Below are positions 4,587 to 37,083 of a DNA stretch of 64,000 nt, in pieces (within the stretch, counting starts at the first letter, position 1; each line of letters begins with the position of its first letter). The position numbers and the translations under genes were made by a program. Source of the DNA: an uncultured Acidimicrobiales bacterium (GTDB lineage: Bacteria; Actinomycetota; Acidimicrobiia; Acidimicrobiales; SZUA-35); NCBI GenBank assembly GCA_937922785.1, contig CALAJQ010000010.1:62001-126000 (forward strand), read 5' to 3'. The notes under the pieces are model-generated. The model saw nothing but the letters and a program-made list of their open reading frames with translations, was not told the origin of the DNA and did not search any database.

Positions 4587-6287
4587 ATGTTCACCCTTAA
4601 GTCAAAGTCAATCGTCGAAACAACCGCTGGCCCGGTAGAGGGTTCCTTTGACGCGCGTCGTCACTATGTTTCATTCAAAGGAATCCCCTACGCAGCTCAG
4701 CCGGTAGGGCAACGCCGCTGGAAGCCTCCGGCCCCGCTAACGCCATGGATCGAGCCTCTCGATTGCACCACACCGGGCCCGATTGCGCATCAGCGCAGCT
4801 CTAGCTATGAGTTCGGCGCCAAAATCGTAGATGGCCTTGGGCTCTCCGTCGGCAAACGAGCCCTTTTGAAAGCGGGCATGCGGGCTCGATCCACAACCGA
4901 ACATGAGAACTGTCTCACGCTTAGTGTCCGTTCTAGAGCAGATGCGGACAACGCACCGGTCATGGTCTGGATACACGGCGGCGACCACACAGACGGAAGT
5001 GGGTCGGAGCCGATTTATGACACAAACGCCCTGGCATCTCGTGGAATAGTTCAAGTCAACATCAACTACCGGTTGGGGTTGTTCGGGTTCTTGGCTCATC
5101 CTGAGCTTGACGAAGAGTCCGAAGCGGGGACGTCGGGCAACTACGGGCTGATGGATCAGATAGCGGCGCTGCGATGGGTTCAGGAAAACATCGAGAACTT
5201 TGGCGGAAACCCCAACAACGTCACGATCTTTGGCGAGTCTGCGGGCGGACAGGCCGTTCTCAACCTCATGACAGCGCCTGCCGCTCGAGGCTTGTTCCAT
5301 CAAGCAATCTCCCAAAGCCCCGGCGACAGCGGCCGATGGCTTCACCATTCACGACCCGCTCTTGACTTTGAACCAGCAAACGTCGCGGGCCTCAAGTTCG
5401 CCAACTTGGCTGTTGGCGACGGCCCGAATCAGATTCCCCGGCTACGTGCTGTAACTGCGGAGCGGCTCATGGTTCTGTACCGAAACCACGCCGAAATCGG
5501 TCGCTACTTCTACCCGGCTGTTGACGGCCACTGGCTTCGGCAAGTTCCGCTGTCGGCGTTCATGCACCGCACGCAGGCTCCAGTGCCGCTGATGATTGGA
5601 TACAACGCCAACGAAGGCTCGTTGTTTTCCGATGCCGGAATCCCGGCCGGGCCAGAGATGCTGGCCTATGGATCCGAAACAGTTCTGACAACGTTGACCC
5701 GTTCCTATGGTTCGGCTGGAATCGCCCGAGCTGTGATGGCTGCCTACCCAGGCCTTGAAGACCTTGAAGCGTCAGCAATTGCTGATCATCTCCGAGACCA
5801 CATCTTTGGCGTCCAGGTAGATCACTGTGCCCGCGAACACGCGGACTCGGGCCACAACGTTTACCGCTACCACTACCGAAACCGGCCAGCATCGCGAACT
5901 GCAACAATCGGCGCCTTTCATGCGGCGGAGATCTTTAATGTATTCGACTCGGCCATTCCGCTAGTGCCTGGGGGAAGCGGGTATGAGAACCTGACCAGAA
6001 CCATGGGCGACCGATGGGCGGCATTTGCTACCACGGGCAGTCCCAATTGTGCGGACCATCCGAACTGGCCCGCTTATGACCCCGATGCTCCGGCCCACAT
6101 GATCTTTAATCGCCCTGACTCTGGCGTCGAGCCCTGTCCTGCGCAGGACGCACTGGATCTAATGCGAGCGCGGATCGAGCGCCTCACTGACATCGTCACC
6201 TCCGACGTTGATCTGACTGAACCCATGCCTAGCCGTCCTGGTGACACATCATCATCTACCGGTGCCAGCATGTTCACCGGGATCTAG
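4587..6287 (+). CDS. type-B carboxylesterase/lipase family protein
   Basis: GESAGGQAV nucleophile elbow, NYRLGLFGF and ENCLTLSV (EDCLxLNV-like) motifs. Confidence 0.93.
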   Translation: MFTLKSKSIVETTAGPVEGSFDARRHYVSFKGIPYAAQPVGQRRWKPPAPLTPWIEPLDCTTPGPIAHQRSSSYEFGAKIVDGLGLSVGKRALLKAGMRARSTTEHENCLTLSVRSRADADNAPVMVWIHGGDHTDGSGSEPIYDTNALASRGIVQVNINYRLGLFGFLAHPELDEESEAGTSGNYGLMDQIAALRWVQENIENFGGNPNNVTIFGESAGGQAVLNLMTAPAARGLFHQAISQSPGDSGRWLHHSRPALDFEPANVAGLKFANLAVGDGPNQIPRLRAVTAERLMVLYRNHAEIGRYFYPAVDGHWLRQVPLSAFMHRTQAPVPLMIGYNANEGSLFSDAGIPAGPEMLAYGSETVLTTLTRSYGSAGIARAVMAAYPGLEDLEASAIADHLRDHIFGVQVDHCAREHADSGHNVYRYHYRNRPASRTATIGAFHAAEIFNVFDSAIPLVPGGSGYENLTRTMGDRWAAFATTGSPNCADHPNWPAYDPDAPAHMIFNRPDSGVEPCPAQDALDLMRARIERLTDIVTSDVDLTEPMPSRPGDTSSSTGASMFTGI

Positions 6288-6817
6288 CTCGCTTTTAAAA
6301 GCTGCTCGGTTAGCTCGGCGATCTTGTTGATAGTTTGGCCGCCAACCACTGACGTGTAGCTGCCACCAGGCTCGACAAACACCAGTGTCGGGTGCGAAGT
6401 TACCTCATAGTGACGCCAAAGCTCGCTGTGGTCATTAACCACATGTTCAAACTCTTCTACCCCGATTTGGTGGATCGCTTTAACTAGGCGCTCGGGTGAG
6501 TCACCGTTGGTCACGGCGACGAATCTAACCTCCTCACCGTATTTCTGTTTCGACAATGCGACCGCAAAGCCCTGAGAGGTGCAGGTCTGTCAATCGGGAG
6601 ACCAGAACCACAAGACCGTTGGTTCTCCCGGTTCTAAGACCTGGTCCGAGGGAATCTCCGAAATCGGCCCGGTTAATGAATCGGTGCTTGCAGTCGGTGT
6701 GGACAGATCCGTACTTTCAGCTTCAGCGGACTGCGAGGCACAACTCGCTGCCAGAAGAGCCAGCACAACCCAAACAATCAGATTCCCCGATGTCCTGAGC
6801 TTGGCCACACCAATCAA
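6284..6817 (-). CDS. thioredoxin-like lipoprotein, predicted selenoprotein (UGA codon 6590-6592 read as Sec, motif D-U-Q-T-C)
   Basis: Track ORFs 6590..6817 and 6284..6556 are in the same frame. Combined reading: ...EPTVLWFWSPD-[UGA]-QTCTSQGF...TSHPTLVF... (Trx active site plus cis-Pro loop). N-terminal signal with LLAASC lipobox-like site. Confidence 0.82.
6560..6587 (-). promoter_or_regulatory. candidate bacterial SECIS hairpin downstream of UGA 6590-6592
   Basis: GACC-(U)-GCA ... UGC-GGUC stem, 13-nt loop CCUCUCAGGGCUU with G residues 18-20 nt after the UGA. Confidence 0.55.
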
Positions 6818-6836
6818 TGTAGCTAACTTGGCGTTT

Positions 6837-7874
6837 ATGAAGATCGCGATGACCGTTAACTACTCTGGCGACGTAAAGGCAATGGCTGAACAAGTCGTGG
6901 CCTATGAAAAGGCTGGCGTTGACCTCGTGTGGGTTCCAGAGGCCTATGGAATGGATGCGGTAACAGTGATGGGGTACCTGGCTGCCCTCACCGAGACCGT
7001 GACAATCGCGTCGGGCATTTTGAACATATACAGCCGCACACCAACCACCCTGGCCATGACCGCAGTGGGAGTCGACGTGTTGTCCGAAGGTCGTGCGGTA
7101 CTAGGACTTGGTGCCTCCGGTCCCCAGGTTGTCGAGGGCTGGCATGGGGTTCCCTACGACGCTCCCCTGGGCCGAACCCGAGAAATCATGCAGATCTGCC
7201 GCAAGATTTGGGCAAGGAAGGACAAGCTCACTCACGATGGCAAGCACTACCAACTGCCCCTTCCGGCCGACCAAGGCACAGGCTTGGGCAAGCCGCTGAA
7301 GATCATCACCCATCCGCCTCGACCATCCATTCCGATCTTCCTGGCCACCTTGGGCCCCAAAATGGTTGAGCTAACTAGCGAGTCTGCGGACGGATGGATC
7401 CCAACTCTGTTTATGCCCGAAGGGGCATCGATGGTCTGGGGTGACGCGATCGAGCGAGGAAAGGCCAAACGACTTGAGGGCCTTCCAGCGCTTGAGACAG
7501 TTGCTGGCGGAATGCTGGCGATCGGGTCAGAGTCAGAGGTTGGCAAGTATCGAGATTATGCACGGCCCGGCGTTGCCCTCTACGTGGGCGGCATGGGCGC
7601 CAGGGGTAAGAACTTCTACAACTCGCTGTTTAGCCAATACGGATACGAAGGCCAAGCCAAGCAGATCCAAGATCTTTATCTAGACGGCCACAAGGACGAG
7701 GCCGCGGCCGCTGTTCCGGCTGAATTCCTTCAGAAGTCCTCGCTCGTTGGAGACGAAGGTTTCGTCAAGGACCGAATCGCCGCTTATGCCGAAGCTGGAG
7801 TTACCTACCTGGGAGTAAATCCAGTGGGAGATGACCCAGTGGGTTCTGTGGCAAAGCTTAAGGAACTTCTTTGA
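6837..7874 (+). CDS. LLM class flavin-dependent (F420-type) oxidoreductase
   Basis: MKIAMTVNYSGD..., GLGASGPQVVEGWHG..., R(T)REIMQICRKIW; typical luciferase-like monooxygenase fold sequence. Confidence 0.9.
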   Translation: MKIAMTVNYSGDVKAMAEQVVAYEKAGVDLVWVPEAYGMDAVTVMGYLAALTETVTIASGILNIYSRTPTTLAMTAVGVDVLSEGRAVLGLGASGPQVVEGWHGVPYDAPLGRTREIMQICRKIWARKDKLTHDGKHYQLPLPADQGTGLGKPLKIITHPPRPSIPIFLATLGPKMVELTSESADGWIPTLFMPEGASMVWGDAIERGKAKRLEGLPALETVAGGMLAIGSESEVGKYRDYARPGVALYVGGMGARGKNFYNSLFSQYGYEGQAKQIQDLYLDGHKDEAAAAVPAEFLQKSSLVGDEGFVKDRIAAYAEAGVTYLGVNPVGDDPVGSVAKLKELL

Positions 7875-8443
7875 CGCTTTTCGACGAGCTCGCTTCTCGG
7901 TTCGAATCCCCACCCGCCCGCGAGTTTTATGGCGAACAGGTCACCATTGCTAGCCACATGTGCCAAGCCGCAGCTTTGGCCGAAGCTGATGGCGCCAGTG
8001 CCGAGATGATCGTCGCCGCACTGCTTCACGACGTTGGCCACCTAGTTCCAGACCTGCGCCCTGATGACCGCAATCGCGATCATGCTCGGTTGGCAATGGA
8101 GATCCTGGGCAAACACTTAGGGCCAGAAGTAACTGAGCCTGTTCGACTACACGTGGATGCTAAGCGCTACTTGGTTGCGGTCGATCCAAGCTATGCCGGC
8201 ACCTTGTCACCGGCTTCGGTTCACACCCTCAAACTTCAAGGGGGGCCAATGACTGAATCTGAAAGCCGAGCGTTTGCCACCCACAAATTCTTTGACGACG
8301 CTGTCAAGCTTCGCCGCTGGGACGAGGCCGCAAAGGATCCATCGGCGCCCGTGTTTAGGCTGTCCCACTTCAAGCCGTACATCGACTCGGTTGCCGTGCT
8401 CGACCCGAATCTGAGCGACCCGAATCTGCACGACCCGACGTGA
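7871..8443 (+). CDS. HD-domain protein, PhnZ/TmpB-like (phosphonate-associated HDIG family)
   Basis: YGEQVT...SH, ALLHDVGHL, HVDAKRYL, LQGGPM, RRWDEAAK motifs as in PhnZ-type HD oxygenases. TTG start overlaps the upstream stop. Confidence 0.75.
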   Translation: MTLFDELASRFESPPAREFYGEQVTIASHMCQAAALAEADGASAEMIVAALLHDVGHLVPDLRPDDRNRDHARLAMEILGKHLGPEVTEPVRLHVDAKRYLVAVDPSYAGTLSPASVHTLKLQGGPMTESESRAFATHKFFDDAVKLRRWDEAAKDPSAPVFRLSHFKPYIDSVAVLDPNLSDPNLHDPT

Positions 8444-8453
8444 GAGGCAAATC

Positions 8454-9155
8454 ATGAGCGATAAGACAGACATTGGGCTGCTTGAAGGCCTGGCGACCAC
8501 GCGAGCCATACGTCGGTACAGGAACGAACCAATTCCGTCCGAAGATCTTGCCAAGATTCTCTTTTCCGCAACTCGAGCACCGACGGGCTCAAACCGTCAG
8601 TCATTCAGGTTCCTAACGTTGCAGGACAGCCCACCGGCGGTAGCTGCCAAATCTGTTCTCGGTGAATCGTTCCGTGCAGGCTGGGCCGCAAAGAAGACCG
8701 CCGACGGCTACTCCGGCGGAACAGGCGCCGACGCTGATTCACCCAAATCTCGCATGGCTCGAACCATGCAACAGTTCGTAGACAACTTTGAGCAGACACC
8801 GGTCGTTGTGCTGGCCTGTGTTCGCGAACGTCACGGATCCATCATGGACGGCGCGTCGATTTATCCCGCTTGTCAGAACCTACTTCTGTCAGCCCGGGCA
8901 CTGGGCTATGGCGGTGTTCTAACCGGATGGCATGGACCTGTGGAGACCGAGCTTCGAGAGCTGCTTCAAATTCCCGACGAGTATCTAATCGGCGCAACAA
9001 TTCCGTTAGGCATACCTGAAGGAAATCACGGGCCAGTAAGACGTCGCCCGCTAAATGAACTTGTCTACGACGGCCAGTGGGGCACAACCCCAGATTGGGC
9101 GCAGGATCCTGAAGGCACCCGATTTACTAGTGCTGGTCCGCCACCAGCCCACTAG
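8454..9155 (+). CDS. nitroreductase family protein
   Basis: TTRAIRRYRNEPIP..., APTGSNRQ..., GGVLTGWHGP; FMN-dependent nitroreductase pattern. Confidence 0.9.
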   Translation: MSDKTDIGLLEGLATTRAIRRYRNEPIPSEDLAKILFSATRAPTGSNRQSFRFLTLQDSPPAVAAKSVLGESFRAGWAAKKTADGYSGGTGADADSPKSRMARTMQQFVDNFEQTPVVVLACVRERHGSIMDGASIYPACQNLLLSARALGYGGVLTGWHGPVETELRELLQIPDEYLIGATIPLGIPEGNHGPVRRRPLNELVYDGQWGTTPDWAQDPEGTRFTSAGPPPAH

Positions 9156-10573
9156 GTCCAGAAACCCGGAAGCGGTCCGACCAGTCTGTTTGAGCCGTAC
9201 TGAGCGAGCTTGTGAGCATCGTCAAGATCCAGCAGCTCGACCACGTCAAACACCGACGATGAACCCACGGCCTTAAGGGCTTTGTAGGTCTCAGACCCTT
9301 TCCTAGGCATGTGCGGTGTTAGCAGCAGCAGACGGGTCCGGCGGCCGATCTTGCGGCGTGACTTCGACGCCGCCAAAACGTGAGACTTAGCCAACACCTT
9401 CCAAACTGCATCGGAGTTCAACATGCCAGGCTTGGAAGTTGTGAACCCGCCAACCACTTCTACGAACCAAGGAATCTGGTCGGCGCTGCTTAAAGCACTA
9501 AAGGTAAAGCTGACACCTGTGCCCTTCAGCTTGGGATTCAGGTCAACTATTTTAAATCCTGCCTCACCCAGTGCTTGCCCTGCAATGTCCACGGCCTTCT
9601 TGCCCAGTGCCACCGCTTGAGAACTTGGCGAATCGACTTCTCGCTGAGACTCAGAGCTTTGAAGCCGAGCCTGCGTCAGATCCACATAAGCCGGATCGGT
9701 GTCATAACCAACAGAACGGCGACCCGCCTGCTGTGCGGCAACCAGTGTGGTGCCTGCGCCCATGAACGGATCCAGAACCAAGTCGCCAGAGTAGGTGTAG
9801 AGATCTATTAGCCGGCGGGGCAACTCCACTGGGAACGGGGCCGGGTGGTTAACCCGTCGAGCACTCTCGGGGTCCATCTCCCACACGTCAAGTGTGGAGG
9901 TTAAGAACTCGTCGGTGGTGATGGTGGGTTGGTGGGGCAAGCCCTGAGCTTCACGCTTGGCGGCAGGCAGGGCCCGGTCGAACCGGCCCTTGGACGCAAC
10001 GATTACACGCTCAGTTACGTCTCTGAGAACTGGGTTAGCTGGCGAGCGAAACGAACCCCACGCGCAGGACCCGTTGCTGCTTCTACTCTTCTGCCAGATG
10101 ATCTCGCCTCTAAGCAGCAAGCCCAGCTCGGCCAATATGTTCGACACGTCGGCCGACAGGCTGCGGTAGGGCTTTCGGCCAAGGTTGGCGACGTTTACAG
10201 CTATCCGTCCGCCCGGTTCGAGCGTCCGAACACACTCGGCAAAGACGTCATGTAACAGGTCAAGGTATTCGCGGTAGCTGGCGGGCAACTCGCCCAGCGC
10301 ATTGCGATCGCCAGCGTAAAGTTCTGACTCATACTCTTTGCCAACAAAATATGGAGGTGAGGTGACCACTAGAGCGACGCTGTTGTCTGGCAATTCAGCC
10401 ATCTTGCGGGCGTCACCCAGAAGAGGTCCTTCTACTTCGGGGGCCGGGCCGATGGTCTGATCATTGGAAATGTCGGGCGGAGTGAAGCGGGCATAGAAGG
10501 CCGACGAATCATGCGCCTCGCGTTTTCCCACACCAAACGCGGAAGTCTCTGTTGCGCTCCGCTCGCGTGCCAT
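9152..10573 (-). CDS. site-specific DNA methyltransferase with C-terminal extension
   Basis: TSPPYFVGKEY (motif IV) precedes DPFMGAGTT (motif I); about 170-aa C-terminal extension. Confidence 0.9.
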   Translation of the reverse strand: MARERSATETSAFGVGKREAHDSSAFYARFTPPDISNDQTIGPAPEVEGPLLGDARKMAELPDNSVALVVTSPPYFVGKEYESELYAGDRNALGELPASYREYLDLLHDVFAECVRTLEPGGRIAVNVANLGRKPYRSLSADVSNILAELGLLLRGEIIWQKSRSSNGSCAWGSFRSPANPVLRDVTERVIVASKGRFDRALPAAKREAQGLPHQPTITTDEFLTSTLDVWEMDPESARRVNHPAPFPVELPRRLIDLYTYSGDLVLDPFMGAGTTLVAAQQAGRRSVGYDTDPAYVDLTQARLQSSESQREVDSPSSQAVALGKKAVDIAGQALGEAGFKIVDLNPKLKGTGVSFTFSALSSADQIPWFVEVVGGFTTSKPGMLNSDAVWKVLAKSHVLAASKSRRKIGRRTRLLLLTPHMPRKGSETYKALKAVGSSSVFDVVELLDLDDAHKLAQYGSNRLVGPLPGFWT

Positions 10574-10583
10574 CGCCCTGACT

Positions 10584-11813
10584 CTATCGGCTAGAAGCCG
10601 CCCGGGTTTCGGCCCAGGTCATGCCCTTTTGCAGATTCATCTCACGCGGCAAGCCCAAGACGTGTTCAGCCACAATGTTGCGCTGAACCGCGAACGTTCC
10701 GCCTCCAAGCGTCAGCGCCGGTGCAAACAAGAATCCGTAGTGCCAGACCGGATCAACTCCAGGGAACTGATCAGTGTGGAGATTGTTCTCGGTTGCCCCA
10801 CTTCCCGACTTCACCGACAGCTCACCAACTGGTCCAGCGCCTGTTAGCAACGCATCGGTGCCAGCAAGGCGCAGAGCCATTTCCATAACTCGCTGACCGT
10901 GCTCATCAGCCAGAATCTTCAAGATCGACGCCTCGGGTCCCGGCGCCTCTCCCCTGATTCGGGCGCTAAGGACCCTTAGTCTTCCCAGCCTTAACACCTC
11001 TGCTTCGCAGTGCAACTGGGCAACCTCTTGCCTAAGTAACGGGTCGTCAACGCCACCCTGTTCTCTCACAATTCGCAACAGATCTGTGGCCGAAGGGCCT
11101 GCGCCCCAAAGTGATCCGCCTGAAGACAGACCCACTCGCTCGTTCGAAAGCGTTACCTTCGTCAACCGCCACCCGTCGTTCTCCGCACCCACAAGATTCT
11201 CAGCCGGAAGGACAACATCATCAAAGAACACCTGGTTAAACGAGTGAGCAGTTGTCATGTCAACCACCGGCGCCATGGTCAAGCCGGGCGCGTCGGTGGG
11301 GCAGATGAAGTATGAGATCCCCTTGTGTTTAGGAACATCTGGGTCGGTCCGGGCTATGAGAATTCCAAAGTCTGCGTGGTGACCGCCGCTGGTCCAGATC
11401 TTTGAGCCGTTGACGATGTAGCTGTCACCATCTCGGACCGCACGGGTGCTGATGTCGGCCAGATCAGACCCCGCATCAGGCTCAGAAAACATCTGGCACC
11501 AGATCTCTTCAGCCGACAAAATCTTCGCCAGGTAACGATCCTTCTGTGCTTCGGTTCCAGCGGCCAAAATAGTCGGACCCGCCCAGCCAATGCCGATCTG
11601 GTTGCCTGGTCTGTTTACTTTCGCTTTGGTGAGTTCGTCGTCGATTAGGAGTTGGTGCTCAGGGCTGGCGTCAAGGCCATAAGGCCGCGGCCAATGAGGC
11701 ACGACGTAGCCAGCTGACGCCAATTGGGCGTAGCTGGGATTCGGGTTCGCTTCGAGCCAGTCACGAACCGCCTGACGTCGTGGGTCATCCTCGGCAGGAA
11801 AATCGAAATCCAT
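10584..11813 (-). CDS. acyl-CoA dehydrogenase family protein
   Basis: MFSEPDAGSDLA, NGSKIWTSGGHHADF and LSNERVGL motifs; start at MDFDFPAEDDPRR. Confidence 0.93.
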   Translation of the reverse strand: MDFDFPAEDDPRRQAVRDWLEANPNPSYAQLASAGYVVPHWPRPYGLDASPEHQLLIDDELTKAKVNRPGNQIGIGWAGPTILAAGTEAQKDRYLAKILSAEEIWCQMFSEPDAGSDLADISTRAVRDGDSYIVNGSKIWTSGGHHADFGILIARTDPDVPKHKGISYFICPTDAPGLTMAPVVDMTTAHSFNQVFFDDVVLPAENLVGAENDGWRLTKVTLSNERVGLSSGGSLWGAGPSATDLLRIVREQGGVDDPLLRQEVAQLHCEAEVLRLGRLRVLSARIRGEAPGPEASILKILADEHGQRVMEMALRLAGTDALLTGAGPVGELSVKSGSGATENNLHTDQFPGVDPVWHYGFLFAPALTLGGGTFAVQRNIVAEHVLGLPREMNLQKGMTWAETRAASSR

Positions 11814-11877
11814 GTTTGGAGTTTCGCCGGTTGGGACGGCTGCACGCCAATTGGCAAACGGCGTGCTTAGTGACTTA

Positions 11878-13161
11878 CTAGAGGGCGAGCTCTTCGCGAA
11901 GCAAGCCCTCAATCAGATCGGCTGCTCGCAGTGCGCCTTGTTCGTCTGCGATCAGCGCAGCAAAACGCCGGGCGTTGTCGGCCATGTGTTCATCAGTGAC
12001 AACCCGGGCCAGTGCCTCACGCAACTGAGACTTCTTCGCCACGTGTAGTCCAGTGCCAAGCTCCATCTGTCTTTCGGCGTGCCAGAGCTGATCAAACAGA
12101 ACTGGAATGGCCACCGAGGGAACTCCAGCGTTCAGAGTTATTGCGCTGGTTCCGGCGGCCCCTGAATGAATCACTGCCTTTGCCCTACTAGCAACAGCAT
12201 CAAGCGGAGCGAACGGCACAGCGTGGTGATTCTCAGAGTTCGGTCCGAGGGCCTCGACAACCGACGGCACCGAGGTGAGGTAAAGGCCTCGCTGGCCAAG
12301 TTCTTCTAACTCAGCCCTTATCTCGGTGAACAGTTCAGGGCGGGCTGACGCCGCAGAGGTTCCAAGACAAACCACCACTGGTGGTCCACCTCGGTCTAAG
12401 AAATTCACAACCTCAGAATCGAGATGACCGGAACCAGGTCCGCCCCAAAGGCTGAAACCGACAGGCACGTAGTTCTCGGGCCAGTCCGGGGCGGGCCTGA
12501 AATAGTGAGGTGAGGACAACCCAATGTTCAGGAAGGGCGAGTCTCCGTAATCGAACGGATTCTTTCGTTCGGCATCGAGACCCTTGCGAGCGCGGAACTT
12601 TGAGAACTGATTGGCGGCTGAAAGCCGGTCAACCAGTCGAGACCCAGCCAAGTCCCAAAGCCTGCGGTTGGCCCTTCTACCCAAATTCGGCATGCCCGGA
12701 GGCGCGTAGTAGCTGCTGCGGCGAAGCATCGGGAACAGATCTCCAGTTACCCAAGGCACATCCGTCGATTCGGCAACCATCGAGGCCACGATCGCAGCCG
12801 CCGAATGAGTCACTATGACGTCGGCCCTTGTGTCAGTTACAGCCTCGCGAAGCGAGTCATAAAGCGGGTCAAGCTGCTTGGCAGTTAGCTCGCCGAAGAA
12901 CATTCGACCAAGTCGAGCGCCCTTTAGCCGCATACCCCAGCGTCGGACGTAACGAGCGTGTCGAGGTGAGTTCAAAAGCTCAGGGCCAAAGTCAGTGCCA
13001 GAGTGTCGACATGAGAACCCTTCTTGGGCAAAATCAGAGTGGTACTCGTTGGGCACAACCATGGTCACGTTGTGCCCGCGATAATGCAGCTCGGCCGCAA
13101 TGGGCACAAACGGGTACACATCGCCTCGGTAGGCCATCGAATAGACAATGACGTTCGCCAC
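11878..13161 (-). CDS. glycosyltransferase, GT1/MGT-like
   Basis: Y(R)GDVYPFVPIAAELHYRGHNVT N-terminus and HSGAAGTSAITLNAGVPSVAIPVLFDQ C-terminal signature. Confidence 0.92.
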   Translation of the reverse strand: MANVIVYSMAYRGDVYPFVPIAAELHYRGHNVTMVVPNEYHSDFAQEGFSCRHSGTDFGPELLNSPRHARYVRRWGMRLKGARLGRMFFGELTAKQLDPLYDSLREAVTDTRADVIVTHSAAAIVASMVAESTDVPWVTGDLFPMLRRSSYYAPPGMPNLGRRANRRLWDLAGSRLVDRLSAANQFSKFRARKGLDAERKNPFDYGDSPFLNIGLSSPHYFRPAPDWPENYVPVGFSLWGGPGSGHLDSEVVNFLDRGGPPVVVCLGTSAASARPELFTEIRAELEELGQRGLYLTSVPSVVEALGPNSENHHAVPFAPLDAVASRAKAVIHSGAAGTSAITLNAGVPSVAIPVLFDQLWHAERQMELGTGLHVAKKSQLREALARVVTDEHMADNARRFAALIADEQGALRAADLIEGLLREELAL

Positions 13162-13208
13162 GCCGACATACTAGGCATCGTGGCTCACGACGCCATAGGC
13201 TGCGCCCG

Positions 13209-14039: not shown

Positions 14040-14063
14040 CCCGCCAAAGGCTAGGGTCACTTG

Positions 14064-25406: not shown

Positions 25407-26360
25407 ATGACCGACCCAGAGGCGCCTGGTTCATCTGGATATACCGCCCTCATCGGCTCGGTTCTCGGCCGTGTTGCCGAGGCTGGCACGTGGATGACCG
25501 CCGATGAACGCGTTGCGGTGGCCAAGCTTTGCCGAGACCCGGATGCAGAAACTGGCGTCAGGCCCGAAATTGCCATGGCAGCCGCAAGGATGGCGCATGA
25601 ACCCACACTGATTACAGCTGATTGGGTGGCCGGGCTAGAGCAACAGGGTCTGGGCCGAGTGACCATGGTCGAAATCATGGGCGTGGTGTCGCGGCAGGTG
25701 GCGATCGACCGGTTCATGTTTGGAGTAGGCGCCGAACTGACCGAGTTACCACCTCCAAATCCGGGCCAACCCACAAAGGCCATAGTGGACCGAGCGAAGC
25801 TTCAGAACGGATTCCTACCCACAGTTGGCGCCGCGTCGCCTAGAACTGCGTTCACGTCGGTCCCAGCCGACCAGGTCGCGCTTGAGGAGCTATGCGCCGG
25901 CTTCTACATGCCGATGGAAGAGATGGGTGACTACTCCTACGTGCGTGATGGCGTCACTAGATCTCAAATTGAACTTGTTGCAGCCCGCACGTCGTTCCTC
26001 AACGACTGCTTCTATTGACTGGTTTCTCACGCCTGGATGCTCCGTGAGAGCACCAACGTTTCAAACATGGCTCTCCACCTTGGCGGCATCACCGACATCG
26101 GCATCGACACCGCAATTCCTGGCGCCGCCGAGCTAATCGCACTAACCGATGCCGTTGTGTTGGCTGACCACGAAGAGCTTGAAATAGCACGTTCCGCGTT
26201 GTCAGAACTACTGGGCGTTGCTGGCACTGTTCGGGTGATCGCGGTGGCCGCGAACTTCATGATGCTCAATATCATCATGGACACACTTGGAACGCGACCC
26301 GGCGATAACTACGTTTTATTGGCTCAAGAACTGGGCATAGGGCACACTCTTACTAACTGA
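25407..26360 (+). CDS. AhpD/carboxymuconolactone decarboxylase-like predicted selenoprotein (UGA 26016-26018 read as Sec, C-F-Y-U-x3-H)
   Basis: Track ORFs 25407..26018 and 26037..26360 share one frame with no other stop: ...AARTSFLNDCFY-[UGA]-LVSHAWMLRESTNVSNMAL... matches the AhpD CxxC-x3-H redox motif with Sec in the second Cys position. Confidence 0.85.
26021..26054 (+). promoter_or_regulatory. candidate bacterial SECIS hairpin downstream of UGA 26016-26018
   Basis: GGU-UUCUCACG [CCUGGAUGCUC] CGUGAGAG-(C)-ACC; 11-bp stem with one bulge, loop GG 17-18 nt after UGA. Confidence 0.72.
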
Positions 26361-28211: not shown

Positions 28212-28239
28212 AAACGTCCTCGGTAGAGCGAGGGACGGC

Positions 28240-28308: not shown

Positions 28309-28398
28309 AGAGCGCTTTGTAGGTCGGGCTGACCAACTAATGAGTACTTCGGTGAGTATTTCTGCTTAAGTTTTTTACCCTCTGCGACGAATAACTGG

Positions 28399-29583
28399 GT
28401 GATGTTAAGCCGCCTCCTTGGTGCCGTTGTTCTTCTTGGCGCCCTCCTAGCAGTACCTATCACCCCAGCCTCGGCAGCGCTTTCTCACGATGAGAATCTC
28501 GCGGCCATCATTGTCGCGGATCACAACAAGGCGAGGGTCGCCGCTGGTCTAACCCCACTTTCGCTGCTGGGCCCACTGGCGAACTTCGCAGACGCCAACA
28601 GCTCCACAATGGCTTCTTCTGGATCTCTGGCCGCAACCGATCTGAACAAGGTCATGGATGCCTTTCCCGGCGCCTCGTGGGCTGGCGAGAACACCGCAAC
28701 CATGTTCGACCCGGCATCTTCAGCAACTGCAATCTGGCTTGAGTCAGAGCCTCATGCGGAGACTCTGATGGCTCCGTTCGCCACTCACGTCTACGCCAGC
28801 GTCAGCTGTAGCGCCGACGGTCGACTTTGGGCCACCGTCATTTTGATGGAAAACGTATCGGCCCCTCAGATCCCACCGCCCGAACCGGACTCAACAAGCC
28901 CGGCCGACTCACGATGTGCCCGACCATTCGAACCATTCCGCTCAAGCCCTGATTTTGTTGCACAGCAGTATCGAGATTTTCTGGCTCGAGAAGCTGACTC
29001 AGATGGCATCAACTACTGGGTCACCGAGATCGAGAACCAACTCGTCACTCCAACCCAGTTGATGGCCGCATTCATGAACAGCGCCGAATTTGGCGGACGA
29101 GTAGCGCCGGTTGTGAGAGTGCACCTGGCAACAACTGATGAACTGCCAACAGCTTCACTGCTGAAGTCCACCTTGACCCGCACCGACGATGGCCTAAGCC
29201 TCGCCGCTTTGGGTGATGAGCTACTTACATCGGCCGCAGGCATCGAAACCTATGGCCAGGTCGACGACGAAACGTTTGCCATCGAGATGTACAACTTGCT
29301 ACTCGACCGACCCGCAACCAGCGCTGAGCTCGCCCAAGTTGCCGGCGCCCTTTCTGGTGGGTCATCCCGTGGCGAAGTTCTTGCCGATCTCGCCAATGCT
29401 GGTGAATATCGAGACGGAACCTACGCCCTGGTTCAGGTCTACATGGCTTACGCCGCAATGCTGCTGCGAGCACCCGATGCCGAGGGCCTCCAGTACTGGA
29501 CCCAGGTTGTAAACGACGGTGGCTCGATTGAGGCGCTTCTCGACGGACTGATCCGTTCAGACGAATACCGCAACCGCTTCTAA
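28399..29583 (+). CDS. secreted CAP/SCP-domain protein with C-terminal DUF4214-like repeats
   Basis: Signal peptide; DHNKARVAAGLTPLSL, GENTATMFDP, FVAQQYRDFLAREADSDGINYWV. Confidence 0.88.
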   Translation: MMLSRLLGAVVLLGALLAVPITPASAALSHDENLAAIIVADHNKARVAAGLTPLSLLGPLANFADANSSTMASSGSLAATDLNKVMDAFPGASWAGENTATMFDPASSATAIWLESEPHAETLMAPFATHVYASVSCSADGRLWATVILMENVSAPQIPPPEPDSTSPADSRCARPFEPFRSSPDFVAQQYRDFLAREADSDGINYWVTEIENQLVTPTQLMAAFMNSAEFGGRVAPVVRVHLATTDELPTASLLKSTLTRTDDGLSLAALGDELLTSAAGIETYGQVDDETFAIEMYNLLLDRPATSAELAQVAGALSGGSSRGEVLADLANAGEYRDGTYALVQVYMAYAAMLLRAPDAEGLQYWTQVVNDGGSIEALLDGLIRSDEYRNRF

Positions 29584-30779
29584 ATCTTGGTGAACCGGCT
29601 TACACATTCGATATGTGAAGTGTGACCGAACATGTCAACCACCACGGTTCGCTCTAGCTGATAGCCATGGCCGATCAGCAGCCCGGCGTCTCTTCCTAGC
29701 GCTGCAGGGTCACAGCTAACAAGGACTATCACCGATGCATTGGTTGCTGCCAGCACCGCAGCATCGTCCGCCCCCAGGCCCGCCCGGGCTGGATCAGCGA
29801 TAACAGCGTTGAAGTCAGAAGCCGTCCAGTCGCCGAAGGCAGCGACGGTTAGCGTCGAGTCTTTAGGGAGGTTCACCTTGGCGTCATCGACGGCGTGGGC
29901 ATTCAGCTCGACTCCCGTGATGGTTCGCCCTCGGCCACATAAAGAACCGAACAGCCCAACGCCGCAATAGGCGTCTAGCAGTGGACCTTCAATCTCACCC
30001 AGCATCTCGTTCGCCAGATCGGTCAGAACCTTCGCACCGTCGGGCCGACACTGAAAGAAAGACTGAGCAGAGATCCGGAATCGTTGATCGCCAATCGTTT
30101 CGTGAATGAATGCCTTTGCACCTGCGTCGAGCTCGTCTTGCCCGACCACGAGCACATCTTCGGGTACCTGCACCTGATCGGCGCTCGGACTTACCAGAAC
30201 CATCCGTTCGCCCGTGTTTGCCCCCACCCTCACCATGACTTCCGATGCTGACCCAAAGCGCCCTTCGGTCAGAATCTGTTCCGCCAAGGGGTGGGCAACC
30301 AGGCAACTATTAACCAGAACCGGCTCGTGAGACTCCGCCTTTCGATACCCGGCCCGACCCTCTGAAACGATGGCCCGGACGGTTGTGCGGTAACCATTCG
30401 GATCCAAGGACGGTCCGGCTTCTACGACGCTGTTCACCAGCTCTGGAGCTAGACGGCCGATGCGTTCCAGCGAGTCGGTGACAATCTTGCGACGCAGCTG
30501 TGACTGAGTCTCTGGTGTTGCGTGTTGCCAATTGCATCCACCACAACCGTCGGGCACATGCGGACATGGCGGCTCTTGGCGGCCCGCAGCACCGTCGATG
30601 ACTTCCACAAGCCGGGCATTTGCGAAGCGCTTCTTGGCCTTCACTACCTCTACCGCAACGGTGTCTCCAGGGATGGCACCCGGCACAAACACCACCCGAC
30701 CATCGTCATCGATCCCGATCCCGTCGCCTCCGCCAGCCACTCGAGAAACGGAGATTTTCAGATTTCTTGCCGATACCAC
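29580..30779 (-). CDS. class I SAM-dependent RNA methyltransferase, TrmA/RumA family
   Basis: CPHVPDGCGGCNWQHA Fe-S cysteines; LLDAYCGVGLFGSLCG; VSCDPAALGRD. Confidence 0.93.
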   Translation of the reverse strand: MVSARNLKISVSRVAGGGDGIGIDDDGRVVFVPGAIPGDTVAVEVVKAKKRFANARLVEVIDGAAGRQEPPCPHVPDGCGGCNWQHATPETQSQLRRKIVTDSLERIGRLAPELVNSVVEAGPSLDPNGYRTTVRAIVSEGRAGYRKAESHEPVLVNSCLVAHPLAEQILTEGRFGSASEVMVRVGANTGERMVLVSPSADQVQVPEDVLVVGQDELDAGAKAFIHETIGDQRFRISAQSFFQCRPDGAKVLTDLANEMLGEIEGPLLDAYCGVGLFGSLCGRGRTITGVELNAHAVDDAKVNLPKDSTLTVAAFGDWTASDFNAVIADPARAGLGADDAAVLAATNASVIVLVSCDPAALGRDAGLLIGHGYQLERTVVVDMFGHTSHIECVSRFTKI

Positions 30780-30816
30780 CCTCGAAGAGTGGCATGCAGT
30801 AGCCGTTCAGGCCAGG

Positions 30817-31512
30817 ATGGCGGCCATGAGTTCTGATTCTCGCATCCAAATCGCCCCGTCCGTCTTGCCCGCCGACTTCTCCAAGCTGGGCGACGAGTGC
30901 ATCGCTCTAGAAGAAGCGGGCGTCGACAGAATCCAGTTCGACATTATGGACGGCCGCTTTGTCCCCAATCTCACGTTCGGAGCGGCAGTGGTGGCGTCGG
31001 TCCGAGACAAGGTAAAGATTCCCTTTGAAGCCCACCTGATGATTGAGGAACCGGACCTGCTCATCCCCGAGTTCATCGATGCCGGCTGTGAGATCATCAT
31101 CGTTCATGAAGAGACCGCCACCCACCTTCATCGGACGCTGTCCAGAATCAAAGATCTTGGTGCTCGGCCCGCAGTAGCCCTGAACCCGCACACGCCGATC
31201 TCCAGAATCGAACACGTTCTCGACTTGTTGGACATGGTGCTGATCATGACCGTGAACCCGGGCTTTGGCGGTCAGGCCTACATCTCAACCATGGAACCCA
31301 AAGTTGAGGCGACCCGTGCTTTGCTAGACACTGCCGACCATTGGATCGACCTGGAAGTCGACGGTGGCATTTCTGACAAAACCGTTTCAGGAGCCGCAGC
31401 CGCGGGGGCGAACGTCTTGATATCTGGGTCGTGGCTCTACAAGCACCCAGGCGGTTTGGGTGCCGGAGTGAAGGAGTTGCGTGAACTTGGCCAAGCCGCC
31501 GCAGGTCAGTAA
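30817..31512 (+). CDS. rpe: ribulose-phosphate 3-epimerase
   Basis: IAPSVLPADFSKLGDE, FDIMDGRFVPNLTFG, MTVNPGFGGQAYI; start chosen between 30817 and 30826. Confidence 0.95.
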   Translation: MAAMSSDSRIQIAPSVLPADFSKLGDECIALEEAGVDRIQFDIMDGRFVPNLTFGAAVVASVRDKVKIPFEAHLMIEEPDLLIPEFIDAGCEIIIVHEETATHLHRTLSRIKDLGARPAVALNPHTPISRIEHVLDLLDMVLIMTVNPGFGGQAYISTMEPKVEATRALLDTADHWIDLEVDGGISDKTVSGAAAAGANVLISGSWLYKHPGGLGAGVKELRELGQAAAGQ

Positions 31513-31521
31513 GGCTCTGTC

Positions 31522-31591
31522 TCTTAGAATTGCGGCGTCTTAGAATTGCGGCCTTCGCTAGCCTGCGTCGCTACCTAGCCTGCTTCGCTAT

Positions 31592-31595
<4 letters not shown>
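31522..31595. repeat. two adjacent short tandem repeats between convergent rpe and clpP stops
   Basis: TCTTAGAATTGCGGC at 31522 and 31538; then TTCGCTAGCCTGC / GTCGCTACCTAGCCTGC / TTCGCTATTTAG. Confidence 0.9.
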
Positions 31596-32206
<611 letters not shown>

Positions 32207-32469
32207 CCACACAGCGTAGTGATAACTGATGCCAGTGGTGCGGAGGGCCGCTGGGTCCCCCAAGTCAGCCAGACCCTCATGCCCGCGCCCCCTCTCTCCC
32301 AAATTGGTGTCACCTGCAGCTGACATTTAGAGAAGATTTGAAATTTTGGCATGGCACCTGATGGCACCAACTAGCCAACTGAGATCGACCTAGCTGGAGT
32401 TCTGAGTCTCGGCTAGTTATCCACAGAAAGTAGAACCTGGCTACCTTTGAGACTTGACCCCAATTTTTT

Positions 32470-32556
32470 TGGTGCGGAAGGGGGGACTTGAACCCCCACA
32501 CCCGTAAGGGCGCCAGGACCTAAACCTGGTGCGTCTGCCAATTCCGCCACTTCCGC
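32470..32556 (-). tRNA. tRNA-Leu(UAG), CCA encoded
   Basis: Reverse strand GCGGAAGTGGCGGAATTGGCAGACGC...CAGGTTTAGGTCCTG...GGTTCAAGTCCCCCCTTCCGCACCA. Confidence 0.96.
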
Positions 32557-32624
32557 GTGACACAATCAATGTATTGCAACAGCGAGTGTAGTGCAGAGCG
32601 CATGCACCCATGCACGAAATCTTT

Positions 32625-33608
32625 TTACTTCGCCAACGAGTTGACCAGCTCCCAGACTTCGGGAGCTACCTGCACGGTGTCAGTGGCTCTGGCCCCGGTA
32701 CCGGGAAGCCGTGCTCCCTCTTGGGCGGCCACCACTTCGGCCAGTGCCTCGACACGGTCATAGAATCCGTCACCGGCAAAGGCAGCCGGATCGACCACGA
32801 GATAGAACTGGCCGATGTCGTGATGAGGACCCTCGGGCGCCTTAAGCGGCGGAATGGTTGTACTGGGCAACGACGCCGTCAAAGCGCTGGCCAACAGTTC
32901 AACCATTAGGCCAAGGCCATAGCCCTTGTAGCCACCGGTTGAGACCAGCGAACCCTTCAACGCTTCGGCCGGGTCAGTGGTCGGGTTACCGTCGGCGTCG
33001 ACTGCCCAGCCAAGTGGAATGGATTCACCAGCAGCGTTGGCCATCGTGATCTTGCCTAAGGCAACAGCGCTGGTGCTGTAATCGAATTGGAAGGCCACTC
33101 CCCCATTTCGGGCGGGCACAGCCATCGCCATCGGGTTTGTTCCAAGAATTGGCGTCGAGCCACCTGGAGGCGCAACTCGGGCGGTCGAGTTAGTGGCACC
33201 GATGGCTAGCAAGCCGACTTTGGCGAATTGTTCGGTGAAGTAACCCAGCGACGTGCAGGTGTGGCTGTGCTCGATTGAATACCCAACGGTGCCGTTGGCA
33301 CGAGCTGCTTCAACGGCGGTTTCAAAACCGGCTTTGAAGGCCCACTGGGCGAAGCCGAATTTTGCATCAACTCGAACTGCGCCCGGGTTGTCATGGGTGA
33401 CCACCGGGTCGGCGTCACCAAGTACGCGGCCCGATTCCAGCTGCAGGCAATAACTCTCCATGTAGTACAGCCCACAGATCCGGTTGCCGTTGGACTCGGC
33501 CACGCGCACCGCGTTGGCTACCGAGTCTGCGACGGCGCTCGGTGCACCGTGGGCAGTCAAGGCTCGGGCCGAAACGGCTTCGATTTCGTCAAGGCTTACG
33601 TCAATCAT
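32625..33608 (-). CDS. Ldh family (malate/L-lactate) oxidoreductase
   Basis: ATNSTARVAPPGGSTPILGTNPMAMAVP; GGYKGYGLGLMVELLASALT. Confidence 0.93.
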   Translation of the reverse strand: MIDVSLDEIEAVSARALTAHGAPSAVADSVANAVRVAESNGNRICGLYYMESYCLQLESGRVLGDADPVVTHDNPGAVRVDAKFGFAQWAFKAGFETAVEAARANGTVGYSIEHSHTCTSLGYFTEQFAKVGLLAIGATNSTARVAPPGGSTPILGTNPMAMAVPARNGGVAFQFDYSTSAVALGKITMANAAGESIPLGWAVDADGNPTTDPAEALKGSLVSTGGYKGYGLGLMVELLASALTASLPSTTIPPLKAPEGPHHDIGQFYLVVDPAAFAGDGFYDRVEALAEVVAAQEGARLPGTGARATDTVQVAPEVWELVNSLAK

Positions 33609-34201
33609 TGGTTCTCCTCACCAGGAAGCTCATCAAGCTTGAGAATTACGTTGTTTAGGGCTCGGGCCCGATGGCTGATCTCAGCCTTCTCCGAGCTTGC
33701 CATTTCAGCGAAGCTACGGCCATCGCTCTCGATTGGAATGAAGACCGGGTCATAACCAAAGCCGCCGTCACCAACCGGGTTGTGCCCGATAGTGCCATCA
33801 ACTCGGCCATCAGCCAGCACCTGGCGGCCGTCGGGCCAAACAACTGCGATCACTGTTTCAAAATAGGCCGAACGATCGTCAGCTCCGTCTAGTGCTGAAA
33901 GCAACTTCGATACGTTGGCTTCGGCATCACAGGCCGGACCGGCGTAACGAGCTGAATACACACCAGGTTCGCCACCGAGCGCAGTCACAAACAAGCCGGT
34001 GTCATCGGCCAACGCAGGAGCGCCCGTAAAGGTAGCGATTTCAGCAGCCTTCTTAACGGCGTTGCCGACAAGAGTGTCTTTGTCTTCGATGGTGTCCGGG
34101 GCTGCGTCGGGGCGCGGCACGATCTCGAACTTGCCTTCCATCAACTCGGCAAGCTCGGCGACCTTTTTCGGGTTGGCCGACGCCAGCACTAACGTGCGCA
34201 A
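33605..34201 (-). CDS. rdgB: XTP/dITP diphosphatase (RdgB/HAM1)
   Basis: TLVLASANPKKVAEL, ADDTGLFVTALGGEPGVYSARYAG, GFGYDPVFIP; TTG start assigned. Confidence 0.95.
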   Translation of the reverse strand: MRTLVLASANPKKVAELAELMEGKFEIVPRPDAAPDTIEDKDTLVGNAVKKAAEIATFTGAPALADDTGLFVTALGGEPGVYSARYAGPACDAEANVSKLLSALDGADDRSAYFETVIAVVWPDGRQVLADGRVDGTIGHNPVGDGGFGYDPVFIPIESDGRSFAEMASSEKAEISHRARALNNVILKLDELPGEENQ

Positions 34202-34208
34202 GTTGCCG

Positions 34209-34937
34209 CTAGCCCCGGTCGGGACGAGCAGGCGGAGGTGTTGAAACAACAGCCTTCTGCATGTCAACCAATTCGCCGATGCCCTTCTGAGCAAAATCGA
34301 GCATCTGGTTTAGCTCGTCACGGCTGAACGGAGCGCCTTCGGCTGTGCCCTGAACTTCGATCATCCCACCTGACCCAGTCATCACAACGTTCATGTCAGT
34401 CTCAGCAGTGGAGTCTTCGATGTAGGGCAAGTCCAAGCGAGCTTCACCGTCGACGATGCCAACGCTGATCGCCGCGCAGAAATCGGTTAGCGGGTGGGAC
34501 TTAATGGTGCCAGCGGCAACCAAACGGCTTAGCGCATCGTGCAAGGCGATGTAGCCGCCGGTGATCGAGGCAGTTCGGGTACCGCCGTCAGCTGAAAGAA
34601 CGTCGCAGTCAACAGTGATAGAGACATCGGGCATCGCTTCCATGTCGCAAACTGCGCGAAGGCTGCGGCCGATTAGTCGCTGGATCTCCATGCTGCGGCC
34701 GTTTTCACGACGGCGTACGCGGTCAGGACTAGAACCCGGAAGCATTGAGTACTCGGCGGTGACCCAACCTTTGCCTGTGTTCTTCATCCACCGGGGCACG
34801 TCAGTCTGCACAGAAGCGGTGCAAAGCACGTGGGTGCGACCGGCCTTCACCAATACAGAGCCGTCGGCCATGTCGGTGAAGTCTCGCTCGAATGTGACCT
34901 GTCGTAGTTCGTCTACTTCACGATTATCGGGGCGCAT
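34209..34937 (-). CDS. rph: ribonuclease PH
   Basis: [49 protein letters not shown]. Confidence 0.97.
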
Positions 34938-34966
34938 TATTTAGCTCAGTTCTTTGTCAGTTCAGG

Positions 34967-35785
34967 TCAGCGGCTGGGAGGATCCCAGCGCATTGCATCA
35001 GTTAGTTCGGGTCCCAACAGTCTGGAGCCGAGATTCTTGAATGCCGCCACATCTCCTGAAGATATGAACTTATGCTGCCCGGTTCGGCCTGGGGCTGGAT
35101 GATTCAGATCTTGAATCGTCAGCAAGTCCTTAAGTTCGAACGCGGTTTCATCCGCTGAGGACACAAGAACAACATCGCGACCCATCACATCGGCAATGGG
35201 TCGAGCCAGGTACGGATAATGGGTGCAGCCCAGAAGCAGAGTGTCGACGTCGGCATCAACTACGGGTTTCAACAGCGCAGTTGCCAACACGTTCACCTCT
35301 GCACCGCTCACAACTCCGCGTTCCACAAACTCAACAAAACCCGGACACGCCGTGACCGTAAGGTTCAGGTCAGCCGGCGGGTTGGCGGCTTTAACCGCTG
35401 CCGGGTAGGCCTCAGAACTCACGGTCCCGACGGTGGCGATTACGCCAATCCGATTCGATTCGGTTACGTCCAACGCTGCTCGAACACCTGGCTCAACAAC
35501 CCCTATGACGGGGATATCCAGAGCCGCGGAAAGCTCGTCAAGCGCGGCAGCTGCTGCGGTATTGCAAGCAACCACGAGGATCTTGATGTCGTATTTGGCC
35601 ACCAAGTGGTTCGCGATTTCGAGGCTGTGACTGAGCACGACGTCTTGGGGCTTGGAACCGTATGGGTATCGGGCGGTGTCACCCAGGTAGACAAGGTCTT
35701 CGCCGGGCAAAAGGTCAATTGTGGCCCGGGCAACGGTTAGTCCACCGAACCCAGAATCGAACATTCCTATCGGCCGAGAGTCCAT
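34967..35785 (-). CDS. murI: glutamate racemase
   Basis: IGMFDSGFGGLTV, VVACNTAAAAAL, LLLGCTHYPYL. Confidence 0.97.
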   Translation of the reverse strand: MDSRPIGMFDSGFGGLTVARATIDLLPGEDLVYLGDTARYPYGSKPQDVVLSHSLEIANHLVAKYDIKILVVACNTAAAAALDELSAALDIPVIGVVEPGVRAALDVTESNRIGVIATVGTVSSEAYPAAVKAANPPADLNLTVTACPGFVEFVERGVVSGAEVNVLATALLKPVVDADVDTLLLGCTHYPYLARPIADVMGRDVVLVSSADETAFELKDLLTIQDLNHPAPGRTGQHKFISSGDVAAFKNLGSRLLGPELTDAMRWDPPSR

Positions 35786-35840
35786 TGCCCAGACACGTTA
35801 GGGCGTGTGACCCACCACCGGGCGTACTTGATAGGTGGAA

Positions 35841-36005
35841 CCTCCCGATTTCTTTCTATTTGTTCTGAGGTCACATACCTTCAGTGCTTACGCAGGTTGG
35901 TCAGGCTTACTGGCGATGCCTTCTGGGGAGACTGACCTCCTGCGTAAAGATCGTGGGCAAATGACAGAAACGCCGGACACAATCGTGTCCGGTCGTTTCA
36001 GTTTT
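35841..36005 (+). ncRNA. candidate structured ncRNA with own terminator; 6S-RNA-like rod architecture (5' end approximate)
   Basis: Stem TTACGCAGG/CCTGCGTAA plus GGTCAG/CTGACC, flanking asymmetric bubble, closing pairs ATTTG/CAAAT and TTTCT/AGAAA; no ORF; strong terminator at 35967-36005. Confidence 0.45.
35967..36005 (+). terminator. strong Rho-independent terminator
   Basis: GAAACG-CCGGACAC-aatc-GTGTCCGG-t-CGTTTC-AGTTTT. Confidence 0.9.
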
Positions 36006-37083
36006 AGGCGAAAGGTGGCTTGTAGTAGTTAGCTCCGCCACCCGAGGCCACGACGTCTTCTAGCCAGCTGCCCTCATACACATCGGTTGGGGCTTGAAGC
36101 ATGTCTGAGGGCTCACCCTCTGGGGTTGTCTCGATAGTCCAGGCTTGGCGCTTATATGTCCAGTTGTCAGGCTGAGCCTCATGAGCGATGCGCCAGTACT
36201 TGCGCGAAGCCTCCTGGTTGCCTTGCTTAAAGAAATACTGGCCAAGCTCAAACGCAGCCGCAGCCCGGGAATGCTCTGGGGTCCGCTGCGCGCTTGCGTC
36301 CATGACCTGGTCTGGCGATAGCGAATACTGCGAATCCGAACCCTTCTCAACCCAGTCGACAACAGCATCGCGGTAGCCAACCGAAACGTCGGGAATCGCT
36401 TTAACGTTCGAAAGAAGCCGCTTCATATCGGGCGGCGTGTCGTCGGGGATTTCCATATCGCTGCTCGGTGAACGATGCAGCGCCGCAGCCTCTGGTGGCC
36501 GAACAAGGTTCAGTTCTTCGTCAATCCAAACCGCCATCGGCACGTTCGTAAAACCAAGAAGTTCGCCAGTGATGTGGGCCGAATCAATGACCGATCGATG
36601 AGTCGGGTTGGCCTTCTCGATCCAAGGCAAGGCCTTCGACCGATCGATGTCCAGAGCTACGGTCACAACTTCGAGCCCCTCTAGTTCCTCGTGCAATGCC
36701 TGCCACCCGGGCAGACTTTCTCTACAGCCTCACCAAGAAGCCCAGGCAACAAGCAGCGTCTTCTTGCCATACATCGACTTCAGACGCCACGGGTTGCCCT
36801 TGTGGTCTGGCAGTTCGAGCTCTGGAGCCCGAACACCGGCCAGTACTTTGGTTTGGCTTTCGGGACCCAAGGCACTTATGCCAGACGCATCGTCGGTGAT
36901 CAGCTCCATGCCCAGCGGCTGAGCTACCCGCATGACGTCCAACATCCCGTCATAATCAAGCGGGGAGTCAATCGGAACACACTGCATGCCCTTACAAAAA
37001 CCTTCTGGCTTTATCTCCCAGCCAGTCCGGGCGGTAAAAACCGCAGGCGACACCTTCAACGAGTCCATCAACATGGTTGCCAA
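36004..37083 (-). CDS. ResA/TlpA-like redoxin, predicted selenoprotein (UGA 36730-36732 read as Sec, W-A-S-W-U-G-C-R)
   Basis: Track ORFs 36730..37083 and 36004..36696 share one frame: ...KKTLLVAWASW-[UGA]-GCRESLPGWQALHEELEGLEVVTVALD...; AhpC/TSA-TlpA-like flanks and a C-terminal TPR-like region. Confidence 0.87.
36698..36716 (-). promoter_or_regulatory. candidate bacterial SECIS hairpin downstream of UGA 36730-36732
   Basis: GUCUGCC [CGGGU] GGCAGGC, 7-bp stem, GGGU apical loop about 21-25 nt after UGA. Confidence 0.72.

What the first reader, a model, noticed from the sequence alone, without database searches (positions are those of the whole stretch)
6284..37083. Three independent UGA-Sec redox genes within about 31 kb suggest a selenoprotein-rich organism
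Three unrelated redox families each carry a single in-frame UGA at the catalytic Cys, each with a hairpin at SECIS distance. Three coincident sequencing errors in exactly these codons is implausible. If Sec is decoded genome-wide, many other genes will be mis-annotated as truncated. I saw no tRNA-Sec or sel genes in this window, so the decoding machinery must lie elsewhere.
Basis: inference. Interest (0 to 1): 0.9.

Follow-up and report, generated by a model that had tools for sequence, protein, structure and literature searches.

The report
Selenoprotein-rich actinobacterium (Acidimicrobiales)
The three genes with an apparent internal stop codon are real genes predicted to insert the rare selenium amino acid selenocysteine at their active site; the genome carries the full machinery for this and about twenty such genes in the half examined, which is well-understood biology in a bacterial group where it seems little described.

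Summary
The finding holds. Three window genes carry one in-frame UGA exactly at a catalytic cysteine: an AhpD-like protein (CFYU), a ResA/TlpA-like protein (WASWUGC) and a thioredoxin-like lipoprotein (SPDUQTC). The same UGA is kept in 30/30 AhpD, 63/63 TlpA and 25/28 thioredoxin loci from relatives; the three exceptions are Cys, two of them in genomes without SelB. The genome has tRNA-Sec(UCA), adjacent selA-selB, and a selD that is itself a UGA gene. UGA homologues occur in 28/30 SelB-positive and 0/10 SelB-negative genomes (p=8e-8). UGA also ends a third of long genes, so it is not reassigned. In the 49% of the genome I could read, at least 19 selenoprotein genes in about ten families were found, with almost nothing comparable at TAG/TAA; one is a UxxU (double-Sec) thioredoxin-like protein. 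The clade is Acidimicrobiales (Actinomycetota), with an aerobic-type COX1. Corrections: two of the three families share the thioredoxin fold; SECIS-like hairpins are significant for the set but not for the window thioredoxin gene alone; two families already have curated NCBI models. Known mechanism, known families, under-described host lineage.

The parts
25407..26360 (+). AhpD-related selenoprotein gene (NF041238, CFYU motif), U at codon 204, terminator TGA at 26358-26360
   Evidence: translation; NF041238 197.7 bits over cut-off 175; U in 30/30 loci
26016..26018 (+). Sec UGA codon of the AhpD-like gene (second redox position of CxxU...H)
26020..26055 (+). SECIS-like hairpin after the UGA, -13.1 kcal/mol
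   Evidence: 8% of coding controls as strong; family-wide 5-bp helix fully formed in 76% of 29 sequences; synonymous-codon test p=0.012
36004..37083 (-). ResA/TlpA-like selenoprotein gene with WAxxUGC motif (NF041054) and a TPR-like C-terminal part; start probably ATG at 37074
   Evidence: NF041054 438.8 bits over cut-off 300; U in 63/63 loci
36730..36732 (-). Sec UGA codon of the TlpA-like gene
36698..36716 (-). SECIS-like hairpin GUCUGCC-CGGGU-GGCAGGC, loop 21 nt after the UGA, -10.0 kcal/mol
   Evidence: 6-bp helix fully formed in 90% of 52 sequences; synonymous-codon test p=7e-4
6284..6817 (-). thioredoxin-like selenoprotein gene with lipoprotein signal (LAASC), UxxC motif
   Evidence: Thioredoxin_8 5e-7; UGA homologues in relatives
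6590..6592 (-). Sec UGA codon of the thioredoxin-like gene
6552..6571 (-). weak SECIS-like hairpin with GGUC loop 27 nt after the UGA (-5.3 kcal/mol); not distinguishable from chance on its own

Best explanation
The three genes are selenoproteins. In this Acidimicrobiales genome, SelD makes selenophosphate, SelA converts Ser-tRNA-Sec(UCA) to Sec-tRNA-Sec, and SelB carries it to ribosomes at a UGA followed by a SECIS hairpin in the reading frame, so selenocysteine replaces the catalytic cysteine of thiol-redox proteins. Shown here: the genes, the conserved UGA, the machinery genes, the hairpin enrichment for the set. Inferred: actual Sec insertion, and the roles (AhpD-like = peroxide or disulfide reduction; TlpA-like and thioredoxin-like = probably thiol:disulfide exchange, the latter membrane-anchored outside the cytoplasm). 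The organism is selenoprotein-rich: at least 19 genes in half the genome, roughly 25 in all by extrapolation.
For: tRNA-Sec at C45:9760-9851 (66.7 bits, anticodon tca); SelA 384.6 bits, C21; SelB 275.2 bits with SelB-wing_3 domain, gene overlapping selA; SelD 368 bits with in-frame TGA, SHGAG[U]GCK. Conserved UGA in 30/30, 63/63 and 25/28 homologous loci with conserved protein on both sides. SelB presence versus UGA homologues 28/30 against 0/10. Own census: 19 Sec genes incl. SelD, GPx NVASR[U]GLT, DUF3179, DsbA-like, UGSC family, PrdB/GrdB-like, five AhpD/CMD, two TlpA, six thioredoxin-like. SECIS-like hairpins stronger than controls, several with a GGU(C) apical loop.
Against: No protein or ribosome data. 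The SECIS hairpin of the window thioredoxin gene is weak, and the family-wide synonymous-codon test for thioredoxin is not significant (p=0.28). Two SelB-positive relatives (G031, G038) show no UGA homologue of these three families. tRNA-Sec is on a short contig (18.9 kb), although relatives carry it too.
Confidence: 0.97

Rival explanations
1. UGA is reassigned genome-wide to an ordinary amino acid (Trp, Gly or Cys).
For: UGA lies inside three conserved reading frames.
Against: UGA ends 549 of 1623 long non-overlapping ORFs and at least 13 of 48 window genes; SelA, SelB and COX1 have no internal stop; the convincing internal UGAs sit at redox Cys positions; a complete Sec machinery is present.
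Confidence: 0.005
2. Sequencing errors or pseudogenes: frames truncated by a mutation TGC/TGT to TGA.
For: Some census hits with R or W aligned to TGA look like ordinary decay or antisense matches.
Against: The identical UGA recurs in dozens of independent genomes with conservation downstream; TAG/TAA controls show no such pattern at redox sites.
Confidence: 0.005
3. Sec is used, but the window thioredoxin gene is a decaying paralogue whose UGA is not efficiently decoded.
For: Weak hairpin (-5.3 kcal/mol, 49% of controls), low coding score (rank 907), divergent motif SPDUQTC instead of WAPWUPTC.
Against: Frame open across the UGA to a TAG, with a lipoprotein signal and a conserved thioredoxin C-terminus; found by homology at 5e-22 in relatives.
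Confidence: 0.08

Closest known systems
Bacterial Sec decoding (tRNA-Sec, SelA, SelB, SelD, bSECIS)
   Same: All four components found; UGA followed by in-frame hairpin, several with a GGU apical loop as in the E. coli formate dehydrogenase SECIS (that comparison is from memory)
   Different: No mechanistic difference found
NF041238 AhpD_rel_CFYUT (AhpD-related (seleno)protein; 'hypothetical protein 1, Sargasso Sea metagenome' in PMC13188914)
   Same: 197.7 bits over the curated cut-off of 175; CFYU motif followed by xxxH
   Different: none of note
NF041054 WAxxUGC_long (ResA-like); UGC-containing Prx/TlpA-like family of PMC2398784 and PMC13188914
   Same: 438.8 bits over the cut-off of NF041054 (300); WAxxUGC motif
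   Different: whether NF041054 and the UGC families named in the papers are the same set was not tested
Sec thioredoxin-like / Prx-like thiol:disulfide oxidoreductases (UxxC, UxxU) in PMC13188914
   Same: UxxC at the redox site, thioredoxin fold; a paralogue with UxxU
   Different: the window protein is a short lipoprotein with no curated equivalog model over its cut-off
Selenoprotein-rich bacteria (Thermodesulfobacteriota, Synergistota, Clostridia; records 57 and 63 genes, PMC13188914)
   Same: at least 19 genes in half a genome, far above the threshold of six (PMC5029168)
   Different: Actinomycetota (Acidimicrobiales) with aerobic-type COX1, whereas 78% of selenoprotein-rich species were anaerobes (PMC5029168); not a record in number

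Membership tests
Sec-decoding bacterium | tRNA-Sec with UCA anticodon | tested here: met
   RF01852 66.7 bits, full length; ARAGORN tRNA-SeC (tca)
Sec-decoding bacterium | SelA, SelB, SelD | tested here: met
   all over curated cut-offs
Sec-decoding bacterium | in-frame SECIS hairpin after the UGA | tested here: met
   set-wise p=4e-5 versus coding controls; strong for SelD and TlpA, modest for AhpD, not significant for the window thioredoxin gene
Sec-decoding bacterium | Sec actually present in the proteins | not testable with these tools
   needs 75Se labelling or mass spectrometry
NF041238 AhpD_rel_CFYUT | score over the curated cut-off | tested here: met
   197.7 versus 175 bits
NF041238 AhpD_rel_CFYUT | CxxU...H redox motif | tested here: met
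   DCFYULVSH
NF041054 WAxxUGC_long | score over the curated cut-off and WAxxUGC motif | tested here: met
   438.8 versus 300 bits; WASWUGC
Thioredoxin-like (Pfam PF13905/PF13098) | gathering score | tested here: met
   30.3 versus 27 and 28.8 versus 27 bits
StoA/ResA equivalogs (NCBIfam) | score over the curated cut-off for the window thioredoxin-like protein | tested here: not met
   best 29.8 versus 210 bits
Selenoprotein-rich organism (at least six genes) | number of selenoprotein genes | tested here: met
   19 in 2.42 Mb; threshold from PMC5029168

The most novel reading that the evidence does not exclude
A family of aerobic Acidimicrobiales has built a large selenoprotein-based thiol-redox network, much of it outside the cytoplasm, with expanded families of Sec thioredoxin-like lipoproteins, including UxxU forms that could work through a diselenide, and is one source of the orphan AhpD-like, UGSC, PrdB-like and UGC selenoproteins seen in environmental metagenomes. 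This would be an exception to the rule that aerobes rarely keep many selenoproteins.
Probability: 0.35. Interest if true: 0.6.

Novelty: new member of a known kind. Interest (0 to 1): 0.45.

Why it matters
It adds an actinobacterial order with respiratory COX1 to the short list of selenoprotein-rich bacteria, against the view that aerobes rarely retain selenoproteins, and gives a host lineage to selenoprotein families known mainly from environmental sequence. It also warns that the less well-modelled families here (thioredoxin-like lipoproteins, UxxU forms, CMD-like) may be split or truncated in standard annotation.

Tried and rejected
A homology census against the organism's own ORFs was swamped by antisense and decay matches. 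A first coding-potential filter with a genome-wide background had too little power; a margin over the other five frames worked. High-scoring TGA sites without a redox motif were mostly two adjacent genes in one frame by Pfam (LysE/patatin, FHA/PP2C, ABC/MacB, ferredoxin/aldehyde dehydrogenase) and were not counted. C8:60974 (weak DsrE match) looks like a normal terminator. C21:12329, C14:1695 and C5:68100 have a Cys at -3 but no family support (C14:1695 was not scanned) and were not counted. Clustering of the three genes within 31 kb was judged by eye only, is not obviously beyond chance, and was not pursued. No structure prediction was made, since motif and family evidence sufficed.

Full report
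Observation. The three genes were re-read with TGA as a residue. A thioredoxin-like lipoprotein gene at 6284-6817(-) reads SPD[U]QTC with UGA at 6590-6592 and ends at TAG. An AhpD-like gene at 25407-26360(+) reads DCFY[U]LVSH with UGA at 26016-26018 and ends at a second, normal TGA. A ResA/TlpA-like gene at 36004-37083(-) reads WASW[U]GCRES with UGA at 36730-36732 and ends at TAA. Pfam places them in thioredoxin-like, CMD and AhpC-TSA/Redoxin families; so two of the three share the thioredoxin fold, a correction to 'three unrelated families'. No fourth Sec gene was seen in the window, and the window has only two tRNA-Leu genes.

Machinery. The window is part of a 4.91-Mb, 45-contig genome, 95.7% complete. 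It holds tRNA-Sec at C45:9760-9851 (66.7 bits, anticodon tca), SelA at C21:42693-43838 (384.6 bits), SelB at C21:43877-44938 (275.2 bits; with the SelB-wing_3 domain, in an ORF overlapping selA by 4 bases), and SelD at C16:164748-165671 (368 bits) with its own in-frame TGA, SHGAG[U]GCK.

Conservation. Searches of up to 99 relatives, together with one genome-contig scan, gave loci in which the same UGA is kept: 30 of 30 AhpD-like, 63 of 63 TlpA-like (some genomes occur in both collections), 25 of 28 thioredoxin-like; the three exceptions are TGC. The pattern preferred U over C where both occurred, so these ratios lean slightly towards U. Among the 40 genomes in which SelB was scored, 28 of 30 SelB-positive and 0 of 10 SelB-negative genomes have a UGA-containing homologue (Fisher p=8e-8, tabulated); SelB-negative G026 and G029 have Cys forms instead. 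The protein is conserved well past the UGA (57% identity over the whole TlpA-like protein), so it is translated.

Not a reassigned codon. UGA ends 549 of 1623 long ORFs (TAG 648, TAA 426) and at least 13 of 48 window genes. SelA, SelB and COX1 have no internal stop.

Census. I could read 2.42 Mb. Among stops flanked by coding sequence on both sides in one frame, Cys at +/-3 occurs at 12 of 62 TGA, 1 of 94 TAG and 0 of 46 TAA sites (p=3e-6). Putting motif, coding score and family scans together gives 19 selenoprotein genes: AhpD-CFYU (window; C20:87229), other AhpD/CMD (C45:16274, C16:148432, C5:26291), thioredoxin-like (window; C20:41817, C5:43758, C34:47412, C6:186233, C8:93892-94329), TlpA-like (window; C8:99527), SelD (C16:165641), PrdB/GrdB-like (C16:83945), UGSC family (C9:173975), GPx (C12:169375), DUF3179 (C6:243103), DsbA-like (C12:239235). 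Contigs were partly chosen because they held hits; on the roughly 1.1 Mb chosen without regard to hits there are three, which suggests about six or seven more in the unread half, so about 25 in all. That is an extrapolation. The published threshold for selenoprotein-rich is six (PMC5029168); the published records are 57 and 63 (PMC13188914).

SECIS. Scored with a simple bSECIS rule (single hairpin, loop 14-37 nt after the UGA, G among the first two loop bases), 19 own Sec UGAs average -10.1 kcal/mol against -5.5 for coding windows (p=4e-5) and -4.3 for terminator UGAs (p=2e-6). GPx, DUF3179 and several thioredoxin-like and CMD genes show a stem capped by GGU(C). Across relatives, the TlpA hairpin forms fully in 90% of sequences and is stronger than synonymous-codon shuffles (p=7e-4); SelD p=2e-6, AhpD p=0.012, thioredoxin p=0.28. 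These tests treat related sequences as independent, so the p-values are optimistic. For the window genes taken singly, only the AhpD hairpin is somewhat unusual (8% of controls); TlpA 21%, thioredoxin 49%.

Lineage and literature. TlpA-like matches in public genomes are almost all metagenome-assembled genomes titled Acidimicrobiales, Acidimicrobiia, Ilumatobacteraceae or unspecified Actinomycetota. Same-family genomes G013, G003 and G010 appear to be the records CALKTH01, QIKW01 and JABDIY01 (same motif sequence and ORF lengths), all titled Acidimicrobiales or Acidimicrobiia. The genome has a COX1 of 517 bits, so aerobic respiration is likely; it does not prove an obligate aerobe. In the held library no paper of substance links Acidimicrobiia with selenoproteins, though the library is incomplete. 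The families themselves are known: AhpD-like, UGSC, PrdB, UGC-containing Prx-like, DsbA and GPx selenoproteins are listed for environmental metagenomes (PMC2398784) and in a 2026 review (PMC13188914), and NCBIfam has curated models for two of the three window families. The mechanism is therefore ordinary; the host lineage and the expansion of thioredoxin-like forms are the fresh part.

Verdict. Real, correctly interpreted, with an ordinary mechanism in an under-described lineage. Interest 0.45 rather than 0.9.

Noticed in passing
G000:C8:93892-94329 (L161), also L143 and L154: A paralogue of the window thioredoxin-like gene has two in-frame UGAs as UxxU (WAPW[UPHU]RREAP); UxxU is kept in two relatives of another genus, so both redox positions are probably Sec.
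   Followed up: partly
G000:C16:83945 (L181:3559-4464): A PrdB/GrdB-like (D-proline/glycine reductase family) protein with UxxC (APA[U]PDCC) in a genome with aerobic-type COX1; it scores below the PrdB equivalog cut-off, so its role is unclear.
   Followed up: partly
G000:C6:243103 (L229:2518-3786): DUF3179 protein with UxxC (VTW[U]PLCGTA) and a GGU-capped hairpin; family function unknown.
   Followed up: partly
L309 (VXTU01000114.1): A record titled Chloroflexi bacterium carries the same WASWUGC TlpA-like gene at 36% identity, suggesting transfer or a wider spread of the family.
   Followed up: no
L295, L297, L312: Records titled Bifidobacterium breve carry these Acidimicrobiales-type genes; the titles are probably wrong.
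   Followed up: no
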